From Xanthomonas arboricola (lineage in GTDB: Bacteria > Pseudomonadota > Gammaproteobacteria > Xanthomonadales > Xanthomonadaceae), in NCBI RefSeq assembly GCF_002940665.1, contig NZ_MIGY01000003.1, positions 911,573 through 975,572 on the forward strand: DNA of 64,000 bases, in the 5' to 3' direction. Position numbers and translations under genes: made by a program. Of the stretch, positions 13,831-51,641 are shown piece after piece (the first letter of the stretch is position 1; every line of letters begins with the position of its first letter). The notes beneath the pieces are model-generated. The model ran no database searches and was not told the origin of the DNA. It saw nothing but the letters and a program-made list of their open reading frames with translations.

Positions 13831-13938
13831 GGCGCGGTGCCCTCACCACTTCCGGGACACGCCGTGCATCCGTCCATGGAAGCCCCTTGGCGGCATCCAT
13901 GCCGCCAAGGGTCCCGCAACCGGCAAGGTCACCGCACC
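13831..13938 (-). repeat. Nested stem-loop repeat, copy 1 (reverse orientation)
   Basis: The outer arms 13831-13858 and 13911-13938 pair at about 21 of 28 positions. They enclose a perfect 12-bp hairpin (CCTTGGCGGCAT at 13885-13896, CC loop, ATGCCGCCAAGG at 13899-13910). It is the left-hand member of a larger composite unit ending near 14,185. Confidence 0.75.
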
Positions 13939-14065
13939 AGGACGTTTTTAGGTTGCTTCATCGAAAGCCTGCTTACTGCTCGGCTCGTCTTGGGCAACTG
14001 ATTGGGCATGCTGCAGACACTGCATGCCACGCCCTGCTCGCCCGTGCACACCGACCATCTGGACT

Positions 14066-14173
14066 GGTCCTTGCCCGCTCACCGTCGCGGGACCTTACGC
14101 GGCATGGATGCCGCGTAAGCGCCTACACGGACGTACTTGCGGCGTGTCTTGCGAGGGTGGGCGGGCAAGGGCC
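14066..14173 (+). repeat. Nested stem-loop repeat, copy 2
   Basis: The 5' arm begins GGTCCTTGCCCGCTCACC and the 3' arm ends GGTGGGCGGGCAAGGGCC. An inner perfect hairpin CTTACGCGGCAT / ATGCCGCGTAAG lies at 14094-14119. Between the inner hairpin and the 3' arm is the family-specific segment containing GGACGTACTTGCGGCGTGTC. Confidence 0.8.
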
Positions 14174-14264
14174 CTGCAGCAAACTCACAGCGTCGAGGGC
14201 GCGGCGAAGACACCGCACCTGTTGCCGGCTGTTTTGAAAACCATGCACACCGACCATCTGGATT

Positions 14265-14372
14265 GGTCCTTGCCCGCCCACCGTCGCGGGACCTTACGCG
14301 GCATGGATGCCGCGTAAGAGCCTACAAGGACGTACTTGCGGCGTGTCCTGCGATGGTGGGCGGGCAAGGACC
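14265..14372 (+). repeat. Nested stem-loop repeat, copy 3
   Basis: The outermost 18 bp of the two arms are perfectly complementary (GGTCCTTGCCCGCCCACC and GGTGGGCGGGCAAGGACC). The inner CTTACGCGGCAT hairpin is conserved. The unit is followed by the conserved tail GCAGATCAGCCGCTCTACAA at about 14386-14405. It is preceded at 14192-14219 by a left-end remnant (GTCGAGGGCGCGG joined directly to ACACCGCACC) whose hairpin is missing. Confidence 0.8.
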
Positions 14373-14647
14373 CTGCAGCGGAGCCGCAGATCAGCCGCTC
14401 TACAACTGATCTAGCCGCGCGACCTCATCCCTAATACACAAGGACACAAAAACAACCGGGATTCCGAGTCGCAGCCTCGCTTACCAGATGCCGTCGAAAC
14501 CTGGCGAGGCGAGCACACAGCGCCCTCCCCGCTCGCGGAACAGCCCGTGACTCCGCACCTGGAGGCTCCCACGTGTCCACACCTGTCGACGGAGCGCTCA
14601 CCGCCGCTGCACTAACGTACCGGAGTCATCCATCAGAGTCTTTGCAC

Positions 14648-14986
14648 ATGCCTGTCAGCTACTCGATCAGCCTGCCCGACCCCAAGCTCGCCCGCGGCGG
14701 CGATGCGAGCGTGAGCTTCAGTGCCCATGGTGCCGAGGCTTTTGCCGAACAGTTGCAGGCCGCCTTGCGCGATCCGGCCTGGTTCGATCGCTGGCGCCAG
14801 CTGCAGGCCGACCCGGATGCGGTGGACCCCAGCCTGGGCGTGACCGATCCATCGGCCACGGTTACCGGCAAGCAGGGCGATCTGCGTGTGGACCTGGTCG
14901 CCACCACCAGCATCCCCGGCGACCTGCTCAAGCAGCGCATGCAGGCCCTGGCCGGGCACCACTGGGAACTGCGCGACGTACGTTGA
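14648..14986 (+). CDS. Conserved hypothetical protein, 112 residues
   Basis: A small soluble protein without signal peptide or membrane segment. It begins MPVSYSISLPDPKLARGGDA, contains an amphipathic helix (AEAFAEQLQAALRDPAWFDRW, about 31-51) and ends in a basic HHWELRDVR. Normal codon use and third-position GC support it as real. I do not recognise a domain. The ATG at 14648 was chosen; an in-frame ATG 75 bp upstream gives a less protein-like lead. It converges on the EamA transporter. Confidence 0.6.
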   Translation: MPVSYSISLPDPKLARGGDASVSFSAHGAEAFAEQLQAALRDPAWFDRWRQLQADPDAVDPSLGVTDPSATVTGKQGDLRVDLVATTSIPGDLLKQRMQALAGHHWELRDVR

Positions 14987-15027
14987 GTTCTACTGCCGCC
15001 GTGTGCGCTGCGCGGCGGCAACGTCGC

Positions 15028-15954
15028 TCAGGCCGGTGCGCTGTCTGCCACACGCCGCGGCCAGCGCCATTTCAGATTCACGGCGAGCGTGCCCACCACG
15101 ATCAGCGCCAGGCCCAGCCACTGCACCGGCACCAATGCGTGGCCGTAGAGCAGATAGTCCAGCAGTAGCGTCACCAGTGGATACACGAACGCCAGCACCG
15201 CAATCGTGGCCACATGCAGATGGCGATAGGACGAATAGAACAGCACATAGACGATGCCGCTGTGGATCACGCCCAGGCCCGCCAGCCACAGCCAGTGCAG
15301 GCCCGAATGCAACGCCGCACTGCTGGAAAACCCGGCCAGCAGGAACGTGCCGACCCAGCACTGCACCGTCACCACCGCCAGCGGCCGCTCACGGCTGATA
15401 CGGCGCGACATCAGCAGCGACGCACCGCATAGCAATGCCGCCAGCAGCGTGAGTGCAATGCCGATCAGATAGCCACGGTCGGCCGCCTGCCACAACCGCG
15501 CCGGGTTTGCCGAGCAGGCCACGCCGACGAATGCCAGCAACGTCCAGCCCAGATCGGCACGCCGCGTGCGCTCGCCCTGCAACAACGCGGCCAGCAGCAG
15601 CATCACGAACGGAAACACGTGGTAGACCATGGTCGCCACGCCGATCGACGAGCGCGCCATGCCGGCGAACAACGCCACCCAATTCAACACCAGCAGCACA
15701 CCGCTGATGATGGCATCGCGCAACAGCGCACGCTCGCGCCATAGCCCTCGTAGCTGTCCACCAACCAAGCCACATACGGTAAGAAACAGCGCCCCGAACA
15801 GGCAGCGATAGAACACCGCCGTCACCGGATCCTGCCCGCTTTCGTGGACGAACACGCCGACCGAACCGATCAGCACTTCGGCAACCAGCAGTTGCCAGAC
15901 CGCCCGTCGCCCAGCGCCGGCCGATGCTGCATGCACGGATAGGGGAGTGCTCAT
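15028..15954 (-). CDS. EamA/DMT-superfamily transporter
   Basis: A 308-residue protein with ten hydrophobic segments in two EamA repeats (about 20-145 and 160-290), the drug/metabolite-transporter fold. Landmarks include VAEVLIGSVGVFVHES in the first helix and FVYPLVTLLLDYLL in the ninth. Such proteins usually export small metabolites or amino acids. Its ATG overlaps the stop of the PhzF gene (ATGA), so the two are co-translated and may modify and export the same compound; that link is inferred. Confidence 0.85.
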   Translation of the reverse strand: MSTPLSVHAASAGAGRRAVWQLLVAEVLIGSVGVFVHESGQDPVTAVFYRCLFGALFLTVCGLVGGQLRGLWRERALLRDAIISGVLLVLNWVALFAGMARSSIGVATMVYHVFPFVMLLLAALLQGERTRRADLGWTLLAFVGVACSANPARLWQAADRGYLIGIALTLLAALLCGASLLMSRRISRERPLAVVTVQCWVGTFLLAGFSSSAALHSGLHWLWLAGLGVIHSGIVYVLFYSSYRHLHVATIAVLAFVYPLVTLLLDYLLYGHALVPVQWLGLALIVVGTLAVNLKWRWPRRVADSAPA

Positions 15955-16754
15955 AGCGCAATGGTTCCCTGCAGATACTGGACGGCGCTGCCACGCACGT
16001 AGACATGCTGCGGCTCGACCCGGCACTGCAGTTCGCCGCCACGCGCGGAGGCCTGCAGCGCGGTGAGCTGCGTCTTGCCCAGCCGCTGCGCCCACAGCGG
16101 CGCAAGCGCGGCATGAATCGATCCGGTGACCGGATCTTCGCTACCGCCGTTGCAGGGCCAGAAATAGCGGGAGACAAAATCATGCTCAAGGCCTGGTGCG
16201 GTGATCGCCACATCGCGCGGCGCCAGCGCCAGCATCCGGCCCAGATCCGGCGTCACCGCACGCACCTGTGCTTGGTCGGCGTAGACAGCGATATACGCCT
16301 GCGCATTCGCATAGACAGCTTGGGGCGCGATCGATAACGACTCAGACAACGCGTGCGGCACCATCTGCACCAGGGACGGCAACTGGTTGGGGAAGCGCAG
16401 CTCGAAGCTGCGCTCGTCCACCCTGGCAACGGCGATCTCACCGACAGCCGGCGCACGCAAGCGCAGCGGAAATGCCGCGTGCTGGTACGTCGCGATCACG
16501 AATGCGCTGGCCAAGGTCGCATGCCCGCAGAAGCCGACCTCCTTCATTGGAGAAAACCAGCGGATGTCGAACACGCCGCTGTCGTCGCGAACGAAGAAGG
16601 CGGTCTCCGAAAGATTGTGTTCGCTGGCGATGGCCTGCATCACCGGCTCCGGCAGCCAGGCCTGCAACGGCACCACGGCTGCCGGATTGCCCTTGAAACG
16701 CACCGTGGTGAACGCATCGACGATAAACACGGGAAGCAGCACGGCCAACCTCAC
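15951..16754 (-). CDS. PhzF-family isomerase
   Basis: About 267 residues of the PhzF / diaminopimelate-epimerase-like fold. The N-terminal half has VDAFTTVRFKGNPAAVV and the catalytic-type NLSETAFF with its conserved Glu. FSPMKEVGFCGHATLASAFV follows, and RYFWPCNGGSEDPVTGSIHA is near the C-terminus. No ATG lies close to the conserved start; GTG at 16754 is the best candidate, with nearby TTG or GTG codons possible. It forms an operon with the EamA transporter and is divergent from a MocR regulator. The substrate is unknown. Confidence 0.82.
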   Translation of the reverse strand: MRLAVLLPVFIVDAFTTVRFKGNPAAVVPLQAWLPEPVMQAIASEHNLSETAFFVRDDSGVFDIRWFSPMKEVGFCGHATLASAFVIATYQHAAFPLRLRAPAVGEIAVARVDERSFELRFPNQLPSLVQMVPHALSESLSIAPQAVYANAQAYIAVYADQAQVRAVTPDLGRMLALAPRDVAITAPGLEHDFVSRYFWPCNGGSEDPVTGSIHAALAPLWAQRLGKTQLTALQASARGGELQCRVEPQHVYVRGSAVQYLQGTIAL

Positions 16755-16812
16755 AGAAGGAATCCATACCTGGCGTACTCGCCGGGCACGCCCAGTCTGC
16801 AACGTGCTACAC

Positions 16813-16856
16813 GACCATGACAGATTCAGATACGCTGCAAATAGACCAATACAGAT
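16813..16856. promoter_or_regulatory. Candidate MocR operator: direct repeats
   Basis: GACCATGACAGAT (16813-16825) and GACCAATACAGAT (16844-16856) are direct repeats matching at 11 of 13 positions, with starts 31 bp apart (about three helical turns). They lie in the 117-bp gap between the divergent phzF-like and MocR genes. GabR/MocR dimers are known to bind widely spaced direct repeats, so this is a good operator candidate. It ends 15 bp before the MocR ATG. Confidence 0.5.
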
Positions 16857-16871
16857 GGAAGGCACCCGCCA

Positions 16872-18281
16872 ATGCTCCTGTACGAATCGCTGGCCACGCA
16901 GCTGCGGCAGCAGATCGAAGGCGGCACCTTGCGTGCCGGCGAGCGCCTGCCCTCGATCCGGCAACTGGCCGCCAACCATGGCATCAGCACTGCCACCGCC
17001 GTGCAGGCCTGCGTGCAACTGGAACGCGAGGGGCGCGTACAAGCGCGCCCGCGCTCGGGCTACTTCGTGCGCAGTACGACGCCTGCATTGCCGGCCGCAG
17101 CACCCGTCACACGTCGGCGCAAGCCGGGCATGGTCGACAACCCGGCCTTGCAGCGCGTGCTCGACACCTTGGCGCGTACCGACCTGGTGCCACTGCACAC
17201 TGCCACCCCCGCGCCTGCGCTATTGCCCACCGCACAACTGGCCGCGGCCCTGTCGCGGCAGCTGCGTCGCCAGCGCTCGGCGGCGTTGGATTACGCACCG
17301 CCGCAAGGCCACGCCGCACTGCGCCGGCAGATCGCACAACGTTATGCACACTGCGCAACCACCGTCGACGCGGAAGAAGTGGTGATCACCGCCGGCGCGA
17401 TGGAAGCGATCAGCCTGGCGCTGCGCACGCTCACCGCGCCAGGCGATGTGGTGCTGGTGGAAACGCCCACGTATCACGGCATCCTGCAGGCGGTGGCGGC
17501 ACTGCGCCTGAAAGTGCTGGAAGTACCCAACCTTCCCGGCCAGGGTATCGATGTCGCGCGTCTGGATACGCTGCTGCAGCGCACGCCGGTGCGTGCGGCA
17601 GTGCTGATTCCCAACTTCAACAATCCAAGCGGCAGCCTCACGCCCGACAGCGCCAAGCGCGCATTGCTCGACAGCTGCGCACGCCATGGCACCGTGGTGA
17701 TCGAGGACGATATCTATGGCGAACTGGATTGGTCGGGGCAACGTCCACGTCCGCTGCGCCACTTCGATACCCATGCCAACGTGATCACCTGCGGCTCGTT
17801 CTCCAAGGTGCTCTCGCCCGGCCTGCGGGTGGGGTGGTTGCTGGGTGGCGACTGGACCGACGCCCTGGTGCGCGCCAAGTACTTTTCCACCGTCGGCAGC
17901 GCCAGCCTGCCGCAACTGGCACTGGCCGACTACCTGGCGCAACACGATCTGGAACGGCATCTGCGCAAGCTGCGCCGCACCCTGGCCGACAACGGGCAGC
18001 GGCTGCGCGATGCCATCGTGCGGCATTGGCCGGAAGGCACGCGCGTGGGCGACCCGGCAGGTGGGTTATCGCTATGGCTGCAGTTGCCCGACGGCGGTAG
18101 CGGCCAGGCCGTGTTCGAGGCCGCGCTGGCAGAACGCATCGGCACCTCGCCCGGTCATCTGTACTCCAGCCGTGGCGACTACGCAGATCACCTGCGGCTG
18201 ACCTGCGGCCAGCCATGGAGCGACACGCTGGAGCGCGCGATGCGCCGATTGGGCAAGCTTGCGGCGCAGGTGGTGCGTTAG
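16872..18281 (+). CDS. MocR-type (GntR/aminotransferase) regulator
   Basis: A 469-residue two-domain regulator. The GntR winged helix covers about residues 1-70 (LRAGERLPSIRQLAANHGIS, VQARPRSGYFVR). A fold-type I aminotransferase-like domain runs from about 100 to the end, with the PLP-lysine region GSFSKVLSPGLRVGWL and the IPNFNNPSG and EDDIYGELDW segments. MocR proteins sense PLP adducts or amino compounds and control a neighbouring gene. It is divergent from the PhzF-EamA pair, which is its likely target. Confidence 0.88.
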   Translation: MLLYESLATQLRQQIEGGTLRAGERLPSIRQLAANHGISTATAVQACVQLEREGRVQARPRSGYFVRSTTPALPAAAPVTRRRKPGMVDNPALQRVLDTLARTDLVPLHTATPAPALLPTAQLAAALSRQLRRQRSAALDYAPPQGHAALRRQIAQRYAHCATTVDAEEVVITAGAMEAISLALRTLTAPGDVVLVETPTYHGILQAVAALRLKVLEVPNLPGQGIDVARLDTLLQRTPVRAAVLIPNFNNPSGSLTPDSAKRALLDSCARHGTVVIEDDIYGELDWSGQRPRPLRHFDTHANVITCGSFSKVLSPGLRVGWLLGGDWTDALVRAKYFSTVGSASLPQLALADYLAQHDLERHLRKLRRTLADNGQRLRDAIVRHWPEGTRVGDPAGGLSLWLQLPDGGSGQAVFEAALAERIGTSPGHLYSSRGDYADHLRLTCGQPWSDTLERAMRRLGKLAAQVVR

Positions 18282-18342
18282 TTTCGTTGCAGGCATCAAC
18301 TTCGTGTTGCCAATTGCGCCTGCTGGACAAGGGGAACGGCGC

Positions 18343-19059
18343 CTACATCGCAGCGGCCCTGGCATCCCACTGCCGCCGATCGACACCGCGGATCAGCAGC
18401 CACAGACAGAACGTCGTTTCGCCCACCAGAACCGGCAGCAGAACCCCGGGATTGATCAGCCGTGCGAACGCAGGCGCCAGCAGTTCGGCGAGCGAAGCCA
18501 CCAGATAACTGATCCCGGCCAGCAACATCAATCCACCCACGAACCTGGGGAAATAGCGCGATCGCCAGATCAGCGTGCCGCTGACCAGGCAGGCGGCGCC
18601 GAAGAAGAGCAAAGCGATGTTGAAACCGAGGTCATGGCCCAGCAATGCCAGCGCGACCAGCGAAAGGGCCTGATCAGGGTCGGCCGCCGAAGAGCCGCCG
18701 GACGCCAGGGGCAGTACCATCAGCTGGAACAGTTTGCTGACCGCCTCTACCGAAAGCGACGCAAGGTTCAATAACACAAACAACAGCGCCAGGCCTCTTC
18801 CAGCAGGCCGCAGCAGCATGTATTCGATCCACAGCTGCACCACCGCAAGCAGCGGCACCACCAGATTTGCGGCCAGCCCCAGCGTCCACAGCTGCGCATG
18901 CTGCACGATGGCGTGGATCGTGGCCCGGGCATCGCCCGGCACGATCAAGGAGTTCGCCACGTAGCCTTCAGCCAGACCGCCGAGAACGATGACGGCGAGA
19001 TAGAGCGCGCCTGCAACTCGCGCATAGAACTGCGGGCGAGCCTGAATGTCGTACGCCAT
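18343..19059 (-). CDS. DUF4386-family membrane protein
   Basis: A 238-residue protein with about seven membrane segments, beginning YARVAGALYLAVIVLGGLAE as in DUF4386 proteins. The function is not established for the family. It is the last gene of a four-gene unit that starts with the ArsR-like regulator at 20116, and it starts 44 bp after the preceding gene. The start MAYDIQARPQF at 19059 is the typical family N-terminus; an upstream ATG adds 16 basic residues. Confidence 0.78.
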   Translation of the reverse strand: MAYDIQARPQFYARVAGALYLAVIVLGGLAEGYVANSLIVPGDARATIHAIVQHAQLWTLGLAANLVVPLLAVVQLWIEYMLLRPAGRGLALLFVLLNLASLSVEAVSKLFQLMVLPLASGGSSAADPDQALSLVALALLGHDLGFNIALLFFGAACLVSGTLIWRSRYFPRFVGGLMLLAGISYLVASLAELLAPAFARLINPGVLLPVLVGETTFCLWLLIRGVDRRQWDARAAAM

Positions 19060-19103
19060 GGAATGTCCCGTCTTTTTGCGTTGTGGGCGAGGCAGGACGG
19101 CAG

Positions 19104-19565
19104 TCACCGCCAGCGGTCACCGGGCATACGGATGAACATCGACGCGACGTAGCGCCACGGGATCACGATCGGAAAGACCACGACCAACAGGCAGGCCGAC
19201 AACGTGGACCACGTGCCGGCATCCATCCGATCAAGCAGCAACCGAGGCGTGGCGACCATACCCAGCCAGATCAGCTTCCATGCAATCTCGAACAGCAGCA
19301 GCGGCAGCAGCTTCAGCGGATAGCGAAGCCCGAGCAATGCCAGCAACCCCATCGCTCCCAGCATGCACTGCACCACACCCTCCATCAGTTCCCAGCTGCC
19401 GTGTCGCAGCACAATGTCTGGCCAGACCTGTACGCCCAGACCAACCACGAGCAACAGATAGCCGGCGCGCAGGCCGTACAACCGCCAAAGCGGCACGGTG
19501 TCCGGCACGCACCCGGGCGTGGTGGAGACGGAGGCGCCGCTGGCGACGGTCGCGGTCGCCGTCAT
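19104..19565 (-). CDS. Small hydrophobic membrane protein, 153 residues
   Basis: Four hydrophobic helices are visible (about 30-48, 64-82, 86-104, 122-142). The loops are short and I recognise no catalytic motif or named family. Its ATG overlaps the stop of the 71-residue gene upstream (19562-19565), so the two are co-translated. Position in the ArsR-DUF4386 unit suggests a membrane partner; the function is unknown. Confidence 0.7.
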   Translation of the reverse strand: MTATATVASGASVSTTPGCVPDTVPLWRLYGLRAGYLLLVVGLGVQVWPDIVLRHGSWELMEGVVQCMLGAMGLLALLGLRYPLKLLPLLLFEIAWKLIWLGMVATPRLLLDRMDAGTWSTLSACLLVVVFPIVIPWRYVASMFIRMPGDRWR

Positions 19566-19777
19566 TCGACGTCCTTGAGAATTCTTTCGATACCCTCCAG
19601 GCGGATGCGCATGTCGTTCAACGCAGTCTGCGTTTTCTCGGCCAGCTCGCGGTAGGCCTGATTGTGATCGAGTTGCGCCTTGGCCTGTCGGATCGCGGCG
19701 AAGTAGCGCATCCCGAAAACCAGCAGGATCGTGCTCAGCGGCAGGCAGATCGTCAAAAGATACAAATGCTCCGACAA
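19562..19777 (-). CDS. Small membrane protein with coiled coil, 71 residues
   Basis: One N-terminal membrane helix (about residues 5-25) is followed by a charged amphipathic, coiled-coil-like stretch (about 27-70, AIRQAKAQLDHNQAYRELAE then KTQTALNDMRIRLEGIERIL). No family is recognised. It lies 9 bp after the ArsR-like regulator stop and overlaps the next gene by 4 bp, strong evidence of an operon. It could be a membrane-tethered assembly partner of the neighbouring membrane proteins. Confidence 0.7.
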   Translation of the reverse strand: MSEHLYLLTICLPLSTILLVFGMRYFAAIRQAKAQLDHNQAYRELAEKTQTALNDMRIRLEGIERILKDVE

Positions 19778-19786
19778 GGCCGTCTC

Positions 19787-20116
19787 CTATTTTTCTGTCT
19801 TGTCGGTCAGCGACATCGCCGCTTCCGCAATGACCGAAGGTGAAAGTTCCAAGCGAAAGGCGCTGACCTCGAAGTAGTTGAGCGCTTTTCCGTCCTGTGA
19901 CAACTCAAGTTGACTGGTCACCAGACCCGCAGCTTCGAGCTTGTTCAAATGCAGATGCAACAACGGACGACTGATCCCGATCTCGCGCGCCAGACTGCTG
20001 ATGTAGTTGCGGCCACCGGTTTCCAGCGCCGCGACGATCCTGAGTCGATGCGGATTATCCAGCGCCGAAAGAATCTCCAGCAATCGATCCCCTGTCGTTT
20101 GCCCCCCCCTTTTCAT
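19787..20116 (-). CDS. ArsR-like winged-helix regulator
   Basis: A 109-residue helix-turn-helix protein. LLEILSALDNPHRLRIVAAL (about 12-31), ISSLAREIGISRPLLHLHLN and a wing around GLVTSQLELSQDGKALNYF give the ArsR/HTH_20 winged-helix fold. No metal-binding Cys cluster of the ELCVCDL kind is present, so it is probably not a classical metal sensor. It heads a unit of three membrane proteins and likely autoregulates it. The ATG at 20116 is preferred; longer readings lack HTH-family similarity. Confidence 0.82.
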   Translation of the reverse strand: MKRGGQTTGDRLLEILSALDNPHRLRIVAALETGGRNYISSLAREIGISRPLLHLHLNKLEAAGLVTSQLELSQDGKALNYFEVSAFRLELSPSVIAEAAMSLTDKTEK

Positions 20117-20299
20117 GCGTAAGAAATATCTGACAGGTGGCGGCGTGTCAAGCGCTGCGGACAAACGTTGCACAAGCGCATTGCTGGAGTGTGGGTCGGC
20201 AACCGGCGTTATCAGGCCATTGCGGCAAGCAGGCACAGTCTGCGCACCATCGGCGCGCGTCTTGTAGCGCCCGCGCCGCACACGCACCCGGCCGGACCA

Positions 20300-21130: not shown

Positions 21131-21188
21131 GAGATTCCTTCGGTAGAAACCTGCGGCCGGCAGGCATGCCGGCCGCAGGATGGGGCGA

Positions 21189-37253: not shown

Positions 37254-37904
37254 ATGAATCTGCTTTCCCGCCTGTCCCTGCTGTTGTTGCTGTTGATGCC
37301 GCTGGCGGCCTGTGCCGCCGACAAGAACGCCCCGCCGGTCGAAGGCGACGACTACATCGTCATCGACGGCGGCCAGCCGTACGCGCCGCTGGCCGGCAAG
37401 GTGGAAGTGGTCGAGGTGTTCGGCTACACCTGTCCGCACTGCGCGCACTTCGAGCCAACCCTGGAGGCCTGGGTGGCCAAGCAGCCGTCGTATGTGCGCT
37501 TCACCCCGGTGCCGGCGGCCTTCGGCGGGTTCTGGGATGCCTTCGCGCGTGCCTACTTCGCCGCCGACATCCTGGGCGTGGCCAAGCGCAGCCATCGCGC
37601 CATGTTCGAGGCGATCCACGAAAAGCAGACCGTGCCGACCCAGAACGTCGCCCCGGAGGAACTGGCCGCCTTCTATGCCGGCTACGGCGTGCCGCAGCAG
37701 CGCTTCATCGAGACCTACAAGAGCCAGGCGGTCGATGCCAGGCTCGATGCCGCGCGCGAGTTCGCCAAGCGCAGCAAGCTGCCCGGCACCCCGGCGATCA
37801 TCGTCAACGGACGCTATCTGATCGGCGCGCGCAACTACCCGGACATGCTGCGCGTGGCCGACTACCTGATCGCCCGCGAACACGCTGCGCCTGCCAAGCG
37901 CTGA
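37254..37904 (+). CDS. DsbA-family thiol-disulfide oxidoreductase, lipoprotein form (CPHC)
   Basis: A 216-residue predicted lipoprotein: signal MNLLSRLSLLLLLLMPLAAC with the lipobox Cys at residue 20. It has a DsbA thioredoxin fold with active site FGYTCPHCAHFEP (about 57-69) and cis-Pro loop GTPAIIVNG (about 178-186). CPHC is the classical DsbA dithiol, so it probably introduces disulfides in periplasmic proteins. The paralogue follows 91 bp downstream. The start at 37254 is supported by GGAG a few bases upstream. Confidence 0.92.
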   Translation: MNLLSRLSLLLLLLMPLAACAADKNAPPVEGDDYIVIDGGQPYAPLAGKVEVVEVFGYTCPHCAHFEPTLEAWVAKQPSYVRFTPVPAAFGGFWDAFARAYFAADILGVAKRSHRAMFEAIHEKQTVPTQNVAPEELAAFYAGYGVPQQRFIETYKSQAVDARLDAAREFAKRSKLPGTPAIIVNGRYLIGARNYPDMLRVADYLIAREHAAPAKR

Positions 37905-37995: not shown

Positions 37996-38811
37996 ATGAA
38001 GACCCGCTTCGCCCTGACGCTGATGGCGCTGCTGCCGATCCTGGTCGCCTGCAAGGCCCAGGACGGCTCGTCCGATACCGCACCTGCCGCCACCACGCCG
38101 GCTGCCGAAACGGCGCCTGCTCCGGCCGCTGCCACGCCGGCCGCCGACCCCGCCGCACCGCCTGCAGTTGGCGAGAGCGCCAGCACCCCGCCGGCCGCCG
38201 CCCCCAGCGCCGCACCGCGCGCGCCGAACGGCCCCGAACCGGTCGCCGGCACCGACTATCTGGATATCGAAGGCGGCCAGCCGTACCAGCAGGCCGCCGG
38301 CAAGATCGAAGTGGCCGAGGTCTTCGGCTATGTCTGCCCCGCCTGCAACGCGTTCCAGCCGCTGATCGGGCCGTGGAAGGCCGGCTTGCCGTCGGACGTG
38401 CACTTTGTCTACGTGCCGGCGATGTTCGGCGGCCCGTGGGACGACTACGGCCGTGCGTTCTACGCCGCCGAAACCCTGGGTGTGCAGGAAAAGACCCACG
38501 AAGCGCTGTACAAGGCCATCCACACCGAGCAGACCCTCAAGGGTGAGCGCGGCAAGGATTCGGTGCAGGACATCGCCGCGTTCTACGCCAAGTACGGCGT
38601 GGACCAGAAGACCTTCATCGACACCATGAGCAGCTTCGGCGTGTCGGCCAAGACCAACCGCGCCAAGCAGTTCGCCACCCGCAGCAAGCTCACCGGCACC
38701 CCGTCGCTGATCGTCAACGGCAAGTACCTGGTCAAGGGCCAGAGCTTCCCGGACATGCTGCGCATCGCCGATCACCTGATTGCGCGCGAACGCGCCACGC
38801 TGGCCAAGTGA
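37996..38811 (+). CDS. DsbA-family thiol-disulfide oxidoreductase, lipoprotein form (CPAC)
   Basis: A 271-residue paralogue of the preceding gene. Lipoprotein signal MKTRFALTLMALLPILVAC (Cys19) is followed by an Ala/Pro/Thr-rich linker of about 70 residues and a DsbA fold with active site FGYVCPACNAF and cis-Pro loop GTPSLIVNG. The CPAC dithiol and the long flexible tether distinguish it from its neighbour. It may reach substrates further from the anchoring membrane or work at a different redox potential; that is inference. Confidence 0.92.
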   Translation: MKTRFALTLMALLPILVACKAQDGSSDTAPAATTPAAETAPAPAAATPAADPAAPPAVGESASTPPAAAPSAAPRAPNGPEPVAGTDYLDIEGGQPYQQAAGKIEVAEVFGYVCPACNAFQPLIGPWKAGLPSDVHFVYVPAMFGGPWDDYGRAFYAAETLGVQEKTHEALYKAIHTEQTLKGERGKDSVQDIAAFYAKYGVDQKTFIDTMSSFGVSAKTNRAKQFATRSKLTGTPSLIVNGKYLVKGQSFPDMLRIADHLIARERATLAK

Positions 38812-43381: not shown

Positions 43382-45052
43382 ATGCAACGCGAGTACGACT
43401 ACATCATCATCGGCGCCGGCTCGGCAGGTAACGTGCTGGCCGCGCGCCTGACCGAAGATCCGGGCGTCAGCGTGTTGCTGCTGGAAGCGGGCGGGCCGGA
43501 TTATCGGCTGGACTTCCGCACCCAGATGCCGGCTGCATTGGCGTTTCCGTTGCAGGGCCGTCGCTACAACTGGGCCTACGAGACCGAGCCGGAGCCGCAT
43601 ATGGACAACCGGCGCATGGAGTGCGGGCGCGGCAAGGGATTGGGCGGCTCGTCCCTGATCAATGGCATGTGCTACATCCGCGGCAATGCCCTGGATTTCG
43701 ACCATTGGGCCAAGCGGCCAGGCCTGGAAGACTGGAGCTACCGCGATGTGTTGCCGTACTTCCGCAAGGCCGAGACGCGCGACATCGGCGCCAACGCTTA
43801 TCACGGCGGCGAAGGCCCGGTCAGCGTCGCCACGCCGAAGAACGACAACAACGTGCTGTTCCATGCCATGGTCGATGCCGGTGTGCAGGCCGGTTACCCG
43901 CGCACCGACGATCTCAATGGCCATCAGCAGGAAGGTTTCGGGCCGATGGATCGCACGGTGACGCCGCAAGGACGTCGCGCAAGCACCGCGCGCGGCTACC
44001 TGGACATGGCGCGTCCGCGCGATGGCCTGCACATCGTCACCCATGCCACCACCGACCGCATCCTGTTTGCCGGCAAGCGCGCGATCGGCGTGCATTACCT
44101 GGTCGGCAACAGCAGCGAAGGCATCGACGTGCATGCACGCCGCGAAGTGCTGGTGTGTGCTGGCGCGATTGCCTCGCCGCAGCTGCTGCAACGCTCGGGT
44201 GTCGGCGCGCCCGATCTATTACGCGCGCTCGACGTGCAACTGGTGCACGACCTGCCCGGCGTCGGCCAGAACCTGCAGGACCACCTGGAGGTCTACATCC
44301 AGTACGCCTGCACCAAACCGGTATCGTTGCATCCGGCATTGCAATGGTGGAATCAGCCGGCCATCGGTGCGGAGTGGCTGTTTGCCGGCACCGGCACCGG
44401 GGCGAGCAACCAGTTCGAGGCCGGCGGTTTCATCCGCACGCGCGACGAGTTCGACTGGCCCAATATCCAGTATCACTTCCTGCCGGTGGCGATCAATTAC
44501 AACGGCAGCAATGCGGTGAAGGAACACGGCTTCCAGGCGCATGTGGGCTCGATGCGCACCCCCAGCCGCGGGCGCGTGCATGCCAAGTCGCGCGACCCGC
44601 GCCAGCATCCGTCGATCCTGTTCAACTACCAATCCACCGATCAGGACTGGCAGGAATTTCGCGATGCGATCCGCATCACCCGCGAGATCATCGCCCAGCC
44701 CGCACTGGACGCTTACCGCGGCCGTGAAATCAGCCCGAGCGCGGACTGTAAGACCGATGCCGAGCTGGACGCGTTCGTACGCGCGCGCGCAGAGACGGCG
44801 TATCACCCGTCCTGCTCCTGCGCGATGGGCACAGATGACATGGCGGTGGTCGACGGACAGGGCCGCGTACACGGCATGGACGGCCTGCGGGTGATCGATG
44901 CCTCGATCATGCCGCGCATCATCACCGGCAACCTCAACGCCACCACCATCATGATCGCCGAGAAGATCGCCGACCGCATGCGTGGCCGCACGCCACTGCC
45001 GCGCAGCACGGTGGACTACTACGTGGCCGGCGATGCGCCTGTGCGCGGGTGA
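43382..45052 (+). CDS. betA: BetA, choline dehydrogenase
   Basis: A 556-residue GMC-family flavoprotein. FAD-binding [19 protein letters not shown] is at the N-terminus, GMC signature 1 is near [19 protein letters not shown], signature 2 lies around [15 protein letters not shown], and the catalytic-His region is [13 protein letters not shown]. It oxidises choline to betaine aldehyde at the membrane. AAGGAG lies just upstream of the ATG. No betI repressor gene is present near the operon. Confidence 0.94.
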
Positions 45053-45238
45053 TGCTAGAAAACGCGGTGCGCCGCCTTGGGTCAAGTGCGCGGTGCCCTC
45101 ACCGCACCAGAGAGTTTGCAGGTTGTTTATTGAAAGCCTGTCTTCTGATCTCGTTGCGTTGCGAAGCTGATCGGATGCGCCATTACCGAACAACGCACGT
45201 CATGCATTGCTTGCAACCATGCACCGACCATCTTCGAT

Positions 45239-45346
45239 GGTCCTTGCCCGCTCACCGTCGCGGGACCTTACGCGGCATGGATGCCGCGTAAGAGCCTACA
45301 CGGACGTACTTGCGGCGTGTCCCGCGAGGGTGGGCGGGCAAGGGCC
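45239..45346 (+). repeat. Nested stem-loop repeat, copy 4
   Basis: GGTCCTTGCCCGCTCACC at the 5' end, GGTGGGCGGGCAAGGGCC-like 3' arm and the inner CTTACGCGGCAT / ATGCCGCGTAAG hairpin. The conserved tail CAGATCAACCGCTCTG follows. Confidence 0.8.
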
Positions 45347-45472
45347 CTGCAGCGAAGTTACAGATCAACCGCTCTGTAATTGATCTATCCGCACTCTCCA
45401 AGCACTTCAAGACAACCGAGATTTAGAGTCGTAGCGCCGTTTAGATGCGATCAAAAGCTTGGTTAGTCGAGC

Positions 45473-45580
45473 GCGCGGTGCCCTCACCGCTCGCGGGACA
45501 CGCCGCAAGTACGTCCTTGTAGGCTCGGTGGCGGCATCCATGCCGCCACACGGTCCCGCAATCGGCGAGGACACCGCACC
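45473..45580 (-). repeat. Nested stem-loop repeat, copy 5 (reverse orientation)
   Basis: Outer arms from GCGCGGTGCCCTCACC to GGACACCGCACC; inner perfect hairpin TGGCGGCAT-CC-ATGCCGCCA. The strand asymmetry is clear from CGCCGCAAGTACGTCC, the complement of GGACGTACTTGCGGCG in the forward copies. Confidence 0.8.
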
Positions 45581-45710
45581 AGAGAGTTTGCAGGTTGTTG
45601 TTGAAAGCCTGTCTTCTGATCTCATTGCGCTGCGGAGCTGATCGGATGCGCATTACCGAACAACGCACGTCCTGCATTGCTTGCAACCATGCACACCGAC
45701 CAGCTCGACT

Positions 45711-45817
45711 GGTCCTTACCCGCCCACCGTCGCGGGACCTTACGCGGCATGGATGCCGCGTAGAGCCTACACGGACGTACTTGCGGCGTGTCCCGCGACG
45801 GTGGGCGGGTAAGGGCC
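45711..45817 (+). repeat. Nested stem-loop repeat, copy 6
   Basis: Same structure as copy 4, with a T/A pair change kept complementary in the arms (GGTCCTTACCCGCC and GGCGGGTAAGGGCC, i.e. CCTTACCC with GGGTAAGG). This compensatory change supports selection or a mechanistic constraint for pairing. The tail reaches 45861, ten bases from the receptor stop. Confidence 0.8.
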
Positions 45818-45870
45818 CTGCAGCAAATCCGCAGATCAGCCGCTCTCCGCTCTACAACTGACACGACGGA

Positions 45871-48750
45871 CTAAAACTTCAAGTCGACCCGCGCATACCA
45901 GAAGCGCCCACCGGGGATGTCGTAAGTGGAGGCGTCGTAGCCATTGAGGGAGCACGACAGGCAGAGCGGCGGGTCCTTGTCGAAGACGTTGTTCAAGCCG
46001 GCCGTGAGCTGCAGCCCCTTGAGCCAATCGACGCGATAGCCCAGCTGTGCATCGTGGTAGGTGATCGCCTCCAGGCGATTGGACCCCACTACAGGATCGG
46101 AACACACCGCAAATCCCACTGCATCGCCGCATTGTTCGGTGAGTTTGGAAATGTGGCGCGCGGTCCACGATGCGGTCCAATTACCCAGCGACCAGTCCAG
46201 TACTGCGTTGCTGGTCCATTCGGGGATCGCGCTGTCCACCACTTCGATGCCCGGCCCCTGCGGCTGACGCTGCCCTGCTGCACCGAGTGCCTCGTAGCGG
46301 CCCACGAAGGTGTTCTGCCAGGACACCTTGAAACGGCCAAACGCCGTCTCCGGCAAGGTCCAGAACAGGTCCACATCCCAACCGTCGGTCTTGATCGAAC
46401 CCAGATTGGTCAGCCGATTGTTGAACGCATTGATGCCGCCGGTGGAGGCGCGGCCGATGCCGTTGCAATACAGCGCGTCCAGGGTGTCCACACATAGATC
46501 CAGCTGGGTTTGCGCATTGATCGCCTGGATCGCGCCATCCACATGATGACGGTAGAACGTCATTTCCAGATCGAGGCGGTCGGACCAGCTGGCATTGCTG
46601 GCAAAGCCCGGGCTGAACACGAAGCCGGCACTGAAGCTGCGCGAACGTTCCGGATCCAGTTGCTCGTTGCCGCCAGTGGTGACCGAGATCTGCTGGTTGG
46701 CCTGTTGATAGCCGGCCGGCACACCGAGCGCCGCGCAGTTCGCGGCGCTGCCGCGCGGCGCGGTACCGCCTAGCCCGATCGAGCATGGATCGGACAACTG
46801 CAGATCGGCGCGCGCCGCCGAACCGAACAGCTCGCCGATGGTTGGCGCACGGAAGCCTTCTGCATAACTGGTGCGCAGCACCAGCTCATCGGTGACCTGC
46901 CAACGCAGGCCGTACTTTGGCGTGAACTCGCCGCCGAAGGTGGAGTAATCCGAGTAGCGGCCGGCGATATTCAAGTCGAGTTTGTCGCCCAACGACGCGT
47001 TGGCGAAGATCGGGATATTGAGTTCGAGATAGGCCTCGTTGACGTCGTAGCTGCCTGACGTCGGCAACGACGGCACACCGTTGTAGCGCCCCGCCACGGT
47101 GAGCGGATCGGGTTGGTAGGCACCTTCGTATTTGCGGTATTCGTAGCCGGTGGCGAACGACACCGCACCACCGGGCAGCTGGAACAGCTCGCTGCTCAGA
47201 TTGGCGGTGAACAGGCTCAACTCGTTCTGGCTGCGGTCGCGCACCACCGGCTGGATCCAGCGCAACATCTCCGGCGTGATGCTGCCGGCGCCGCTGAAGA
47301 TATCCAGTGGCACGCAGCCGGCCACCGCCGCGCATGCGGCCGGATCGCCCAGGCCAAGGTTGATGTTGTAGAGGTTGTAGCTGCCGTAGTTGGTCTGTTC
47401 GGCCTCGTTCTTGCTGTACATGCCGTTGATGTCCCAGAACCAGGTGCGCGCCGCACCTTCGAAGGTGCCCACCAGACCGGTGCCGAAGTACTGCGTGTCG
47501 ACCTGTTGCTCGAAACGGCGCGCCCCGCCTTCCACCGGTCGGCGGCCGATCTGGATCAGGTTGGTGGCCGAGTTCAACTCGAAGCCGAACGGATTGAACG
47601 GATTGAGCGCGGAAATCACGATGTTGTCGGCAAGCGGATTGCCGGTGCCGGCATCGGGGCCGAGAAAGATCGGCTCGGGCGCCGCCTGGTTGGTCGACTC
47701 GCGCCGGTTGCCCAGCGCCTTGACGTACCACTGCACGTCGTCGTTGAAGTAATAGCGAAACTGCGCGAATACGCCCTTGCGCTCGGATGGCGTCAGCAAC
47801 AGGTTCTGTTCTGCAAAGTTGTAGCGGTCCGCGGTGCCGAAACAGTGGTAGTCGTCGCTGCGCGTACAGCCGGCGCTGCCATCGTATCGCGGCGTGCCGA
47901 CGCCGGCGTTGGGCGTGAGGTTCTGGCGCACGCCGGTATTGGGGTCGACGAACTGGAAGCGGCCATCCGGCGTTGCCGAGCTGGCGAAGGTCAACCCGGT
48001 GCCCGGGATCGGAAAGCGGGCCTGCGCGCGGTCGCGTGCGTAGATCGGATCCTGCTTGACGTAGCTGGCGCCCAGAAACAGGCTGAAATCCTCGCCACTG
48101 GTGCCCCAGGCCAGGTCCATGCCCTGGTTGGCGCCGTCGCCCTTGCCGTACTGCCCGTAATTGAGCGTGACCTGCGCACCGTCGAAGCTGCGCCGGGTGA
48201 TGATGTTGACCACGCCGGCGATCGCATCCGAGCCGTACAACGACGAGGCACCATCTTCGAGCACCTCGATGCGCTCCACGATGGCCAACGGAATGGTGTT
48301 GAGATCGGTCGAGGAGCCTACCCCGGAGGCCGAGGATTCGTTGACCCAGCGGATGCCATCGACCAGGACCAGCACGCGTTTGGAGCCGAGATGGCGCAGA
48401 TCCACCTGCGCCGAGCCGGCGCCCACGCCGCCGCCATCGGGCGGAAAGCCGAAGTTGCCGGATGAGTTGAACTTGGCGTTGAGCGCCGAACCCGACGCGG
48501 TGAGTTCCTGCAGCACCTCGCCGATCGAGGTCAGGCCGGTGCGTTCGATGTCGGCGCGGTTGAGCGTCTGGATCGGCACCTGGCCCTGCAATTCTGCGGT
48601 CTTGATGCGGGTGCCGGTGACCTGCACGCTGTCGAGCGTGCGCGTACTCGGGGCCGCCTCGGGCTGTTGCGCCCAGGCGAATGCGGGAATCAGACACAAC
48701 GACAACTGCACGGCCAGGCATGACCGAGGGGAGCCAATTAGACGCTTCAT
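45871..48750 (-). CDS. TonB-dependent outer-membrane receptor
   Basis: A 959-residue receptor. The signal peptide ends near AFAWAQ (about residue 29). A TonB-box-like region is followed by the plug domain (about 45-175: [62 protein letters not shown]) and a 22-stranded beta-barrel ending in an aromatic, [10 protein letters not shown]. The ligand is unknown; the type is common among Xanthomonas receptors of the btuB/cirA-like class. GAGAGAAAGG lies just before the ATG. It is divergent from slt across a perfect palindrome. Confidence 0.92.
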
Positions 48751-48905
48751 CCTTTCTCTCTCCAGAAGGATTTCCAAGTGTCCGCACGCCCCCGTGCCCT
48801 GCGGCCCGCCGCAACTTTTAAACGAAACCTTAACGCGCCGCAAGCCGACCGTTCCGCAGCGAGAAGCAGGTCGCACTACCTGCGCGTCTGCTGCTTTGGC
48901 GCGCG

Positions 48906-48939
48906 CCGGCGATGTGCATATGCACATGCACATCGCTGG
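48906..48939. promoter_or_regulatory. Palindrome between the receptor and slt
   Basis: ATGTGCATATGCACAT (48912-48927) is a perfect 16-bp palindrome. It is embedded in a wider inverted repeat (48906-48919 against 48926-48939, 13 of 14 positions). It lies about 160 bp upstream of the receptor ATG and 87 bp upstream of slt. It could be an operator for one or both genes; the binding protein is unknown. Confidence 0.5.
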
Positions 48940-49025
48940 CGCACGTCGCTGCCGACAGCGCCGGCAGGCATCGATCCTGCGGGTATTCACTCCGGCACGC
49001 AGGCGCGCTTGGGTATCATCGCGCA

Positions 49026-50999
49026 ATGACTTATGCCCCCCGTCTTGCCATTGTTTTCGTCGGCCTGCTGTGCCTTGGCAGCACCACGCTGCATGCCCAA
49101 AACCCCGACCCGCAACTGGCCGCCATGCGCGATGCCATCGCTGCCGCAGAGCGCGGCCAGTCCGATGCCGGTCAACTCGGTGCCCTGAGCCGTCACCCGC
49201 TCTATGGCTGGCTGGAATTTGCCACGCTCAAGCGCAACATCGACAACGTCTCCAACTCGCAGGCGCAGGGATTTCTGCAGCGCTATGCAGGCCAACCGGT
49301 GGCCGAAAGCTTTCGCAGCACCTGGTTGCCGGCGGTGGCGCGTCGCCAGGACTGGACCACCTTGCTGGCCAACTGGAAGCCCACCGACAACGTCGGCCTG
49401 CGCTGCGCGCAGCTGACCGCGCGGCAGGCAACCGGCAAGCTGGATGCCCAGTGGAGCCGCGATGCGTTGACGTTATGGCGCACCGGCAAGGGCCTGCCCG
49501 ATGCCTGCGATCCGGTGGTCGCCGGGCTGGAGTCGCGCGGCGAGCTCACTCCGGCGCTGCGCTGGGAGCGTGTGGAGGCAGCCGCCGATGCACAACTGCC
49601 TGCGGTGATGCGTACCGCCGCACGCGGTCTGCCGGCAGCCGATCTGGCCCTGGCCACCGACTACGCCGCGTTTCTGGACAAGGCACATCCACGTGCATTG
49701 AGCTGGCCCCAGACCGAGCGCAGCCGTCGCATCGCGGTCGATGGCCTGGCCAAGCTGGCCAAGAACGATTCGGACGCAGCCGAGCAGCAGTTGCCGCAGC
49801 TGGCCACCGCGCTCGGCTTCAGCGAGGCGCAGCGCGGCCAGGTGCTGTACCAGGTCGCGCTGTGGACGGTGGCGTCGTACCTGCCTGATTCGGCGCGTCG
49901 CCTCAATGCAGTGCCCGATGCCTCGTACGACGAGCGCCTGCACGAATGGCGTGCGCGCGAAGCGATGTCGCGGGGTGACTGGCCGGCGGCATTGGCGGCG
50001 ATCCGCAAGATGCCCGCCACCCAGCGCAGCGATTCGCGCTGGCAATATTTCGAAGCGCGCCTGGCCGAGAAGACCGGCGCTGGCGCTGCCGCACAGCCGC
50101 TGTATCGCGCCGCCGCGCAATCGCCGACCTTCCACGGCTTCCTGGCCGCCGATCGTCTGCAGCAGGCTTATCGGCTGTGCCCGTGGGAGCCCAGGGACAA
50201 CCCGCAGGCCAAGGCCGCCGTCGCGCGTGATCCTGCGCTGGTCCGCGCAATCGCCTTGTTCCAGATCGACCGCCCCGGTTGGGCGGTGGCCGAGTGGAAC
50301 GATGCCGCGAGCCGCTTCGACGACACCCAGCGCCGCCTGGCGGTGCAGGTGGCCGGCGAAAACGGCTGGTTCGATCGCGCAGTGTTCGCGCTCGGCAAGC
50401 AGCCGGACGAACAACGCCTGTATGCGTTGCGCTTTCCGCTGCATCACGACGACAGCATTCGCCGCGAAGCAGCCAAGAACGCGATCGACCCGGCCTGGGT
50501 GGCAGCGGAGATCCGTGCCGAAAGCATCTTCAATCCGCGCGCGCGCTCGCCTGCCAACGCGATGGGCCTGATGCAGGTATTGCCGGGTACCGGCGCGGCC
50601 GTGGCCAAGGGTATCGCCCTGCCCGGTTACGCGGGCGCCAACAGCCTGTACGAGCCGGACACCAACATTGCCATCGGCACCGCCTACCTGCGCCAGTTGC
50701 TCAATACCTACGGCCTGCCCTACCTCACCATCGCCGCCTACAATGCCGGCCCGGGGCCGACCGGGCGCTGGCAATCGCAACGGCCCAACTTCGAGCCGGA
50801 CTTCTGGATCGAGACCATCAGCTACAAGGAAACCCGCGAGTACGTCGCGCGCGTGCTGGCATTCAGCGTCATCTACGACTGGCGGCTCAACGGCGACATG
50901 CTGCCGCTCAGCGATCGGCTGATGGGCAAGCTGGTGGACAAGCGCTTGAAGCCGGTGTGCACGCCAGGCCAGGCGACCGATAACGCGGCGCAGGACTGA
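49026..50999 (+). CDS. slt: Soluble lytic murein transglycosylase
   Basis: A 657-residue periplasmic protein. The signal peptide ends near LHAQ (about 21). A long helical superhelix follows (about 25-450), then an SLT domain (about 480-610) with the catalytic Glu in [30 protein letters not shown] and the AYNAGPGPT motif. It cleaves peptidoglycan glycan strands to 1,6-anhydro-muropeptides. These products connect to the amino-sugar recycling and nag functions further along, although only functionally. Confidence 0.93.
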
Positions 51000-51009
51000 A
51001 CTCCCAGTC

Positions 51010-51029
51010 AGCCGCCGAGCATGGCGGCT
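51010..51029 (+). terminator. Possible hairpin after slt
   Basis: AGCCGCC / GGCGGCT, a 7-bp stem with a 6-nt loop, 11 bp after the stop. It has no T-run, so termination is uncertain. Confidence 0.35.
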
Positions 51030-51236
51030 GGATGAGGTGATCGTGCTTGCGCGGTTGCGGGTGGTTGTCTCGGCCTGGGGCGCAAGCTAGGCCATGCCGC
51101 TCGGATACTTGCCTTTCGTTACGCTCCTAAGCTTCGGGCTTTGAGGCTTCAGACTCACAGGCTCCGAGGCTCTGGGGCCAACCAAGCTTTCCCGTCATTG
51201 CGTTGTTCCGGTGCATCGAAGGCTCGGGTCGGCGAG

Positions 51237-51345
51237 GGCGCGGTGCCCTCACCGCTTGCGGGACACGCCGTGAATCCGTCCGTGGAGGCTCGGTGGCGGC
51301 ATCCATGCCGCCACACGGTCCCGCAACCGGCAAGGACACCGCACC
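51237..51345 (-). repeat. Nested stem-loop repeat, copy 7 (reverse orientation)
   Basis: Outer arms pair at about 23 of 28 positions (GGCGCGGTGCCCTCACCGCT at one end, CAAGGACACCGCACC at the other). The inner perfect hairpin TGGCGGCAT-CC-ATGCCGCCA is at about 51294-51313. Confidence 0.8.
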
Positions 51346-51533
51346 AGAAAGTTGGTCGGCTGCTTTTTTGAAAGCGTGTTGCCCGACCTGCTCTGGGCAG
51401 ATGAGAGACTAGTGGCTTGCTTGCTGAAAGCCTGCCTGCTGCTTAGGTTGCGACGAGAGGCTGGCCGGACACACCGTGATCCGAACAATGCACGTCCTGC
51501 CCTGTTTGCACGTGCACACCGACCATCTCGACC

Positions 51534-51641
51534 GGTCCTTGCCCGCCCACTGTCGCGGGACCTTACGCGGCATGGATGCCGCGTAAGAGCCTACATGGAC
51601 GTACTTGCGGCGCGTCCTGCGATGGTGGGCGGGCAAGGGCC
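51534..51641 (+). repeat. Nested stem-loop repeat, copy 8
   Basis: GGTCCTTGCCCGCCCACT arm pairs with GATGGTGGGCGGGCAAGGGC; the inner CTTACGCGGCAT / ATGCCGCGTAAG hairpin is conserved. A degenerate 3' half-copy follows at about 51668-51702. Confidence 0.8.

What the first reader, a model, noticed from the sequence alone, without database searches (positions are those of the whole stretch)
13831..51641. A dispersed intergenic repeat that folds as a stem around a second stem
At least eight copies of a unit of about 110 bp sit in three intergenic blocks (13.8-14.4, 45.1-45.9, 51.2-51.7 kb). Each has outer arms of 18-28 bp with strong complementarity (perfect over the outermost 18 bp in copy 3) and a perfect 10-12 bp inner hairpin beside a conserved asymmetric segment (GGACGTACTTGCGGCG). 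Copies occur in both orientations. Copy 6 keeps pairing through a compensatory change (CCTTACCC with GGGTAAGG). This conservation of fold points to function or to a mobility mechanism (REPIN- or MITE-like), or to a structured RNA. No transposase is encoded nearby.
Basis: seen in the sequence. Interest (0 to 1): 0.72.

Follow-up and report, generated by a model that had tools for sequence, protein, structure and literature searches.

The report
Scattered paired RsmA-type RNA hairpins
A 108-base folding element is scattered through this Xanthomonas-like genome; its two loops carry the motif that the global RNA-binding regulator RsmA/CsrA recognises, so it may be a dispersed set of RsmA landing sites, which has not yet been shown by experiment.

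Summary
The eight window copies belong to at least 165. They fold as a three-way junction: a long outer stem and two short hairpins; the "asymmetric segment" is the second hairpin. In 99 matches, 86 from other genera, 98.4% of pair cells pair and 38 of 41 pairs change on both sides. Outer stems differ between genera yet pair. The two hexaloops stay fixed, C-ANGGAN-G, in both loops of 92 of 99 and 136 of 150 copies: the CsrA/RsmA motif. Stem mismatches favour G·T over A·C (133:11; 372:68). Relatives are patchy in Gammaproteobacteria (72 of 369 genomes). The closest family, Rfam TwoAYGGAY, was already predicted to bind CsrA (PMC4333381); window copies score below its threshold. In Xanthomonas they form divergent B–A pairs between genes, mostly beyond gene 3' ends. 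Most likely: a dispersing RNA element that binds RsmA when transcribed. Binding and expression are untested. Orientation to genes shows no sense bias (23:23), the placement bias fails to repeat in a second genome, and selfish DNA remains a rival. No link to a Y1/RAYT gene was found in the own genome.

The parts
13832..13938 (-). copy 1, type B three-way-junction element
   Evidence: 104.0 bits with R1
14066..14173 (+). copy 2, type A element
   Evidence: 119.9 bits
14192..14219 (.). probable remnant of a type B element without its hairpins, upstream of copy 3
   Evidence: seen by eye in the sequence: GTCGAGGGCGCGGCG...ACACCGCACC; not matched by the script
14265..14372 (+). copy 3, type A element, 28-pair outer stem
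   Evidence: z -13.95
45085..45116 (.). deletion scar: type B element lost between two CACCGC direct repeats, upstream of copy 4
   Evidence: sequence
45239..45346 (+). copy 4, type A element
   Evidence: 126.5 bits
45473..45580 (-). copy 5, type B element
45711..45817 (+). copy 6, type A element with the compensatory CCTTACCC/GGGTAAGG change
   Evidence: its minimum-energy inner fold differs
51233..51655 (+). composite unit B(-)-spacer-A(+), the stretch that recurs at other loci
   Evidence: dispersed matches mostly start at query 613-641 and end at 1049-1056 of window:50600-52300 (some run further)
51238..51345 (-). copy 7, type B element
51534..51641 (+). copy 8, type A element
51667..51705 (+). 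partial 3' half of a further type A element
   Evidence: seen in sequence; D2 family

Best explanation
The element is a structured RNA unit of about 108 nt: a long outer stem that can take almost any sequence, holding two short hairpins side by side, each with the hexaloop C-ANGGAN-G. That is the recognition hairpin of the RsmA/CsrA dimer, so one element should offer one dimer two sites. It is a high-copy, Xanthomonas-specific branch of the same architecture as Rfam TwoAYGGAY RNA. It spreads in the genome as divergent B(-)-spacer-A(+) units that settle between genes, in the own genome mostly beyond gene 3' ends. When read-through transcription passes the right strand, the RNA binds RsmA, so the many copies together act as dispersed RsmA sites (sponge, 3'-UTR mark, or both). 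Shown here: copy number, fold, covariation, loop invariance, strand asymmetry, placement, unit structure. Inferred: RsmA binding, transcription, any effect on RsmA, and the mechanism of spread.
For: Loops: CANGGANG in loop 1 of 96 of 99, loop 2 of 95 of 99, both in 92 of 99 (A5; 13 rows are from same-genus genomes, 86 from other genera); in the own genome 145, 141 and 136 of 150. The N positions vary in loop 2 while A, G, G, A stay. Structure: A5 98.4% of cells paired, covariation score 0.933 against 0.197 in shuffles and at most 0.157 with slid partners (the alignment is fitted to the model, which helps the first figure); 36 of 41 pairs with double changes in a MAFFT alignment of 24 sequences from 17 genomes. 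Strand: G·T 133 vs A·C 11 and 372 vs 68. PMC3937308 (passages) gives ACARGGAUG as the RsmA consensus. TwoAYGGAY, the same junction, was predicted to bind CsrA (PMC4333381, passages). The own genome has a csrA gene. 67 of 72 element-bearing genomes have csrA against 246 of 297 others (Fisher p 0.03). Placement in own genome: 44 of 81 clusters between convergent genes against 31 of 249 background pairs, 2 of 81 between divergent genes against 41 of 249.
Against: No binding or transcription data. Single-orientation clusters in tandem gene contexts show no sense bias: own 4:9, G065 18:9, G103 1:5, pooled 23:23. The 3'-side preference does not repeat in G065 (7 of 44 divergent, 10 of 44 convergent; p 0.81 and 0.38), and 5 of 20 G103 clusters are divergent. 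Five of 72 element-bearing genomes gave no csrA match: four are 67-88% complete, but G312 is 98% complete with 9 element matches. A published Xcc sRNA-seq reports 612 candidates of which only two small groups are homologous to each other (PMC7694677, passages), which does not look like many expressed repeat copies in that condition; whether that strain holds the element was not checked. GGA motifs alone do not prove binding: some Xanthomonas GGA leaders were not bound by RsmA (PMC3937308), and RsmU still bound RsmA after its GGA motifs were changed (PMC7694677). No sigma-70-like promoter or terminator-like site was found in the two window blocks scanned, of three. Single-sequence folding of c6 does not give the junction.
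Confidence: 0.6

Rival explanations
1. Selfish mobile DNA. The paired hairpins are recognised as single-stranded DNA by an unknown mobilising enzyme acting in trans (REPIN/MITE-like); the RsmA-like loops are that enzyme's recognition letters and any RsmA binding is incidental.
For: High copy number, patchy distribution (30 of 119 family genomes, 15 of 54 genera; at most 32 candidates scored per genome), composite units repeated at unrelated loci, presence/absence variation at one site (both types 12, A only 7, B only 2, none 9 of 30 loci, three of the nine with both flanks seen), no sense bias to neighbouring genes. G·T is also more stable than A·C in single-stranded DNA (general knowledge).
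Against: No linked transposase of the Y1 kind; the two PF01797 genes are 15.8 and 23.7 kb from the nearest listed copy. No exact match of the core pattern in viral contigs, no plasmid match with copy c3. Chance identity of both loops with the CsrA consensus is hard to explain. The outer stem is free in sequence, unlike known terminal recognition ends.
Confidence: 0.25
2. A bidirectional 3'-end structure: the divergent hairpins between convergent genes stop transcription or protect mRNA 3' ends, with no RsmA role.
For: In the own genome 44 of 81 clusters are convergent and 28 of 35 tandem clusters lie nearer the upstream gene's 3' end than the downstream start (medians 131 and 289 bases); 53 of 81 clusters hold both orientations.
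Against: No T-run terminator in the two scanned blocks; placement bias absent in G065; does not explain the fixed loops or the conserved junction.
Confidence: 0.12
3. Ordinary non-functional repeats spread by segmental duplication only.
For: Some neighbouring copies are tandem duplicates (A-A period near 184-199).
Against: At least 165 copies in 81 clusters, relatives in 64 of 272 genera, compensated stems.
Confidence: 0.03

Closest known systems
TwoAYGGAY RNA, Rfam RF01731 (Weinberg et al. 2010, PMC2864571; CsrA-binding prediction in PMC4333381)
   Same: Same three-way junction: outer stem and two hairpins with ANGGAN loops closed by C-G. Relatives of our element in G065 (L141, 45.6 bits) and G463 (L185, 44.0 bits) exceed its gathering score of 43 in a permissive scan, though the fast-filter scan did not list them. 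Our model R2 matches 6 of 12 TwoAYGGAY loci at E below 1e-4. TwoAYGGAY hits are also multi-copy and occur in divergent -/+ pairs in G275, G385 and G478.
   Different: No TwoAYGGAY match in the window at the gathering threshold or in 44900-51900 at E up to 1, and none in the own genome (strict filters, 7 candidates scored). Hairpin 2 is short with a conserved 5-base bulge instead of about 15 pairs. Only 5 of the 23 TwoAYGGAY-positive genomes are among the 72 found with our model.
CsrB/CsrC/RsmX/Y/Z-type RsmA sponge RNAs
   Same: Works alike in design: several GGA-loop hairpins on one RNA (general knowledge; PMC3937308 passages).
   Different: Not one or a few dedicated genes but a large dispersed family without a recognised promoter; no Rfam match to those families in the window.
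RsmU, the RsmA-binding sRNA from the comEA 3'-UTR of X. campestris (PMC7694677)
   Same: Downstream of a gene, GGA motifs, RsmA target.
   Different: Single locus, 117 nt, with a terminator. The 138-aa HHH_3 (comEA-like) gene of the own genome at C1:252254 has no listed element hit near it (nearest 256570).
REP/REPIN of Xanthomonas (PMC2817692, passages)
   Same: Dispersed extragenic palindromes, also in alternating orientation.
   Different: Those are about 22-base GTAG-headed palindromes tied to RAYT genes; ours is about 108 bases with a branched fold, and no such REP is in the window.

Membership tests
TwoAYGGAY (RF01731) | Score at or above the Rfam gathering threshold (43 bits) | tested here: not met
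   window; own genome, 0 matches, 7 candidates scored. Relatives L141 and L185 reach 45.6 and 44.0 bits in the permissive scan but were not listed by the fast-filter scan.
TwoAYGGAY (RF01731) | Three-way junction: variable outer stem plus two hairpins | tested here: met
TwoAYGGAY (RF01731) | AYGGAY in both terminal loops | tested here: inconclusive
   loop 1 of own copies nearly always AYGGAY (143 of 150: T/T 137, T/C 5, C/T 1); loop 2 has AYGGAY in 88 of 150, otherwise ANGGAN or degenerate
CsrA/RsmA-binding RNA | CANGGANG hexaloop hairpins, at least two per RNA | tested here: met
   both loops in 92 of 99 and 136 of 150
CsrA/RsmA-binding RNA | Physical binding and titration of CsrA/RsmA | not testable with these tools
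   Needs gel shift or pull-down
CsrA/RsmA-binding RNA | Transcribed on the CANGGANG strand | not testable with these tools
   No expression data held; the PMC7694677 passages seen do not show it
REP/REPIN | GTAG/GTGG-headed palindrome of about 20-40 bases | tested here: not met
   0 matches in the window with up to 3 mismatches to a pattern covering the Xanthomonas REPs in the table of PMC2817692
REP/REPIN | RAYT/Y1 transposase flanked by copies | tested here: not met
   two PF01797 genes in the own genome; nearest listed copies 15.8 and 23.7 kb away; no R1 hit in L123 or L124
MITE | Terminal inverted repeats with target-site duplication at clean insertion junctions | tested here: inconclusive
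   Unit ends cluster but are ragged; three sites without copies and with both flanks seen but junctions not resolved

The most novel reading that the evidence does not exclude
Xanthomonas, for which a 2014 paper reports no RsmB-type RNAs (one comEA 3'-UTR sponge, RsmU, was reported in 2020), may set its free RsmA level largely through a self-spreading element: over 150 intergenic copies, each a ready-made two-site RsmA clamp, so that transcriptional read-through across the genome is summed into RsmA titration. The divergent pairing would give one sense clamp whichever neighbouring gene reads through. Similar high-copy families would have spread repeatedly across Gammaproteobacteria.
Probability: 0.27. 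Interest if true: 0.87.

Novelty: new variant of a known kind. Interest (0 to 1): 0.68.

Why it matters
PMC3937308 (2014, passages read) states that rsmB homologs had not been identified in Xanthomonas and suggests an undiscovered mechanism; PMC7694677 (2020, sections read) added RsmU. If these repeats bind RsmA, the genome carries hundreds of unannotated RsmA sites, and an open question becomes testable by gel shift and by re-reading existing RNA-seq and RsmA pull-down data with multi-mapping reads kept. It would also give the catalogued but uncharacterised TwoAYGGAY family a broader context: a patchy, often high-copy, pair-wise dispersed architecture in Gammaproteobacteria, most of whose carriers found here (67 of 72 genomes) gave no match to the Rfam model under the same kind of scan.

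Tried and rejected
REPIN/RAYT linkage: not supported; only PF01797 and only the own genome were tested. Identity with RsmU: rejected. Spread by phage or plasmid: the core pattern gave 0 stretches in viral contigs by exact match and copy c3 gave no plasmid match; only one sequence was tried on plasmids. Own promoters or terminators: none found in 44950-45950 and 51000-51800; the first block was not scanned. Sense-strand bias to neighbouring genes: tested in three genomes, not found. csrA co-occurrence: only weakly informative because csrA is in 313 of 369 genomes. Target-site duplications: unit ends are ragged. Scars of precise B loss: matched upstream of 3 of 45 A copies that lack a B partner. 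Literature: the listings showed no paper on this Xanthomonas repeat or on a dispersed CsrA-site repeat; the library holds open-licence papers only, and I judged by title, abstract start and the passages named.

The 165 include truncated and diverged copies. In one search three opposite-strand hits were dropped from 73. Gene contexts rest on my own codon-usage gene caller, not on an annotation; 3 of 81 own clusters overlap a weakly called ORF, as do 1 of 44 in G065 and 4 of 20 in G103. Genome scans scored only 32, 10, 7 and 9 candidates per genome with strict filters, so absences there are soft.
Full report
WHAT IS THERE. They come in two outer-stem types, A (c2, c3, c4, c6, c8) and B (c1, c5, c7). 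Folding each as RNA gives z-scores from -6.5 to -13.95 with 0 of 200 shuffles as good. On single sequences hairpin 2 is weak and c6 folds differently inside, so the junction rests on covariation.

HOW MANY. A covariance model from the eight copies (R1) gave 150 matches in the own genome, which is the listing cap. In 77 stretches fetched around them plus the window I keep 165 copies, 103 type A and 62 type B by nearest stem, in 81 clusters.

FOLD AND COVARIATION. A second model (R2) was built from 24 sequences of 17 genomes; 36 of its 41 pairs carry compensatory changes. On 99 matches over 81 loci searched (A5; 13 rows from same-genus genomes, 94 distinct rows) 98.4% of cells pair, 38 of 41 pairs have changes on both sides, and the covariation score is 0.933 against 0.197 in shuffles and 0.129-0.157 when partners are slid. 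The alignment was fitted to the model, which favours the paired fraction. The outer stem is unrelated in sequence between genera. The A and B stems of the window are found (up to 5 substitutions in 26) in 12 of 12 Xanthomonas loci and 0 of 9 loci of other genera, 21 chosen of the 117 loci, which also supports the window being Xanthomonas.

WHAT IS FIXED. The invariant letters in the two loops spell C-A-N-G-G-A-N-G twice. Both loops carry it in 92 of 99 (A5) and 136 of 150 (A2) copies, and the N positions vary. This is the CsrA/RsmA hairpin consensus (the form CANGGANG recalled from Schubert et al. 2007; PMC3937308, passages, gives ACARGGAUG with GGA most conserved). Mismatches in stems are G·T 133 to A·C 11 in A5 and 372 to 68 in A2 (binomial p below 1e-26, with the caveat that copies are related and the model mildly prefers G·U). 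A strand-neutral constraint would give equal numbers, so the CANGGANG strand is the one that acts as a single strand, as RNA or as ssDNA.

ARRANGEMENT. Within clusters the unit is B(-)-spacer-A(+), with spacers mostly near 52, 130 or 180-200 bases; 53 of 81 clusters hold both orientations. Composite units align between unrelated loci with ragged ends just outside B and A; dispersed matches to the 51-kb locus mostly cover window 51212-51240 to 51648-51655. Divergent pairs also occur in G103 (5 of 5 two-copy clusters) and among TwoAYGGAY hits of G275, G385 and G478, with 152-170 bases between the arms in four pairs and 134 in a fifth.

PLACEMENT. By my own gene caller, 44 of 81 own-genome clusters lie between convergent genes, 35 between tandem genes, 2 between divergent genes (one is window block 1); background pairs are 31, 177 and 41 of 249. 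In tandem gaps 28 of 35 sit nearer the upstream gene's end. This bias does not repeat in G065 (10 convergent, 27 tandem, 7 divergent of 44) nor in G103 (3, 10 and 5 of 20, two open). Single-orientation clusters in tandem gaps are sense:antisense 4:9, 18:9 and 1:5, pooled 23:23. So placement argues against a simple 'sense 3'-UTR' rule.

TURNOVER. At the 51-kb locus, 30 fetched loci of the genus (own included; 31 genomes searched) carry both types in 12, A only in 7 (one cut by a contig end), B only in 2 and none in 9, of which three show both flanks. Window 45085-45116 is a B element lost between short direct repeats, a form matched at 3 of 45 A copies without a B partner; 14192-14219 looks similar by eye.

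DISTRIBUTION. R1: 30 of 119 genomes of the family, 15 of 54 genera. R2: 72 of 369 genomes of the class, 64 of 272 genera; 31 of 398 genomes of the phylum, each positive in the same class, the number of searched genomes outside the class not being given. These scans scored few candidates per genome. G065 gave 62 matches and G103 35, two of these 97 partial and weak. csrA (PF02599) is in 67 of 72 element-bearing and 246 of 297 other genomes; of the five without, G312 is 98% complete.

KNOWN RELATIVES. Rfam has nothing at threshold in the window and no TwoAYGGAY in 44900-51900 at E up to 1. TwoAYGGAY (RF01731) exceeds its gathering score in relatives L141 and L185 in a permissive scan, but the fast-filter scan did not list these two. 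The family shows the same junction, and R2 matches 6 of 12 TwoAYGGAY loci at E below 1e-4. In the class scan RF01731 finds 23 of 369 genomes, 15 over threshold, own genome none, with 5 shared with our 72. PMC2864571 (one table row seen) lists TwoAYGGAY as a probable RNA of gut, Gammaproteobacteria and Clostridiales; PMC4333381 (passages) predicts that it binds CsrA. The idea of CsrA binding for this architecture is therefore not new; the Xanthomonas branch, its copy number, pairing, placement, strand asymmetry and stem freedom are what is added here.

MECHANISM. Shown: a strand-specific folded element with two RsmA-type loops, many copies, spread as units. Inferred: that the RNA is made, that RsmA binds it, and that the sum of copies matters. 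The published Xcc small-RNA screen (PMC7694677; abstract, sections 2.4 and Discussion, and passages) does not, in what I saw, name these repeats or show large homologous groups, which is evidence against strong accumulation in that condition. The mobilising mechanism is unknown: no linked Y1 transposase was found in the own genome.

VERDICT. A real, unusually well-supported structured element, best filed as a new, very abundant variant of the TwoAYGGAY kind, with a testable proposal for RsmA control in Xanthomonas.

Noticed in passing
L060 (C1 near 808 kb), L097, L100, L108 of the own genome: A third stem subtype forms regular alternating A-B arrays with gaps near 78 and 185 bases, unlike the rest of the genome.
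   Followed up: partly
L319, L321, L323 and places (G275, G385, G478): Rfam TwoAYGGAY itself is multi-copy and occurs in divergent -/+ pairs with 134-170 bases between them in some genomes.
   Followed up: partly
window 13334-14641: Block 1 lies in a divergent gap between a gene that looks like kdpA (11522-13333, by eye, no family search) and a 114-aa ORF; it is one of only two divergent sites among 81.
   Followed up: no
window 37759-37898 and 38669-38808: A 140-nt direct repeat, 76% identical, lying within two neighbouring called genes (37254-37904, 37996-38811), probably paralogues.
   Followed up: no
G312: A 98% complete genome with 9 element matches but no csrA match; either a gap in the draft or a case against the CsrA reading.
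   Followed up: no
   Followed up: no
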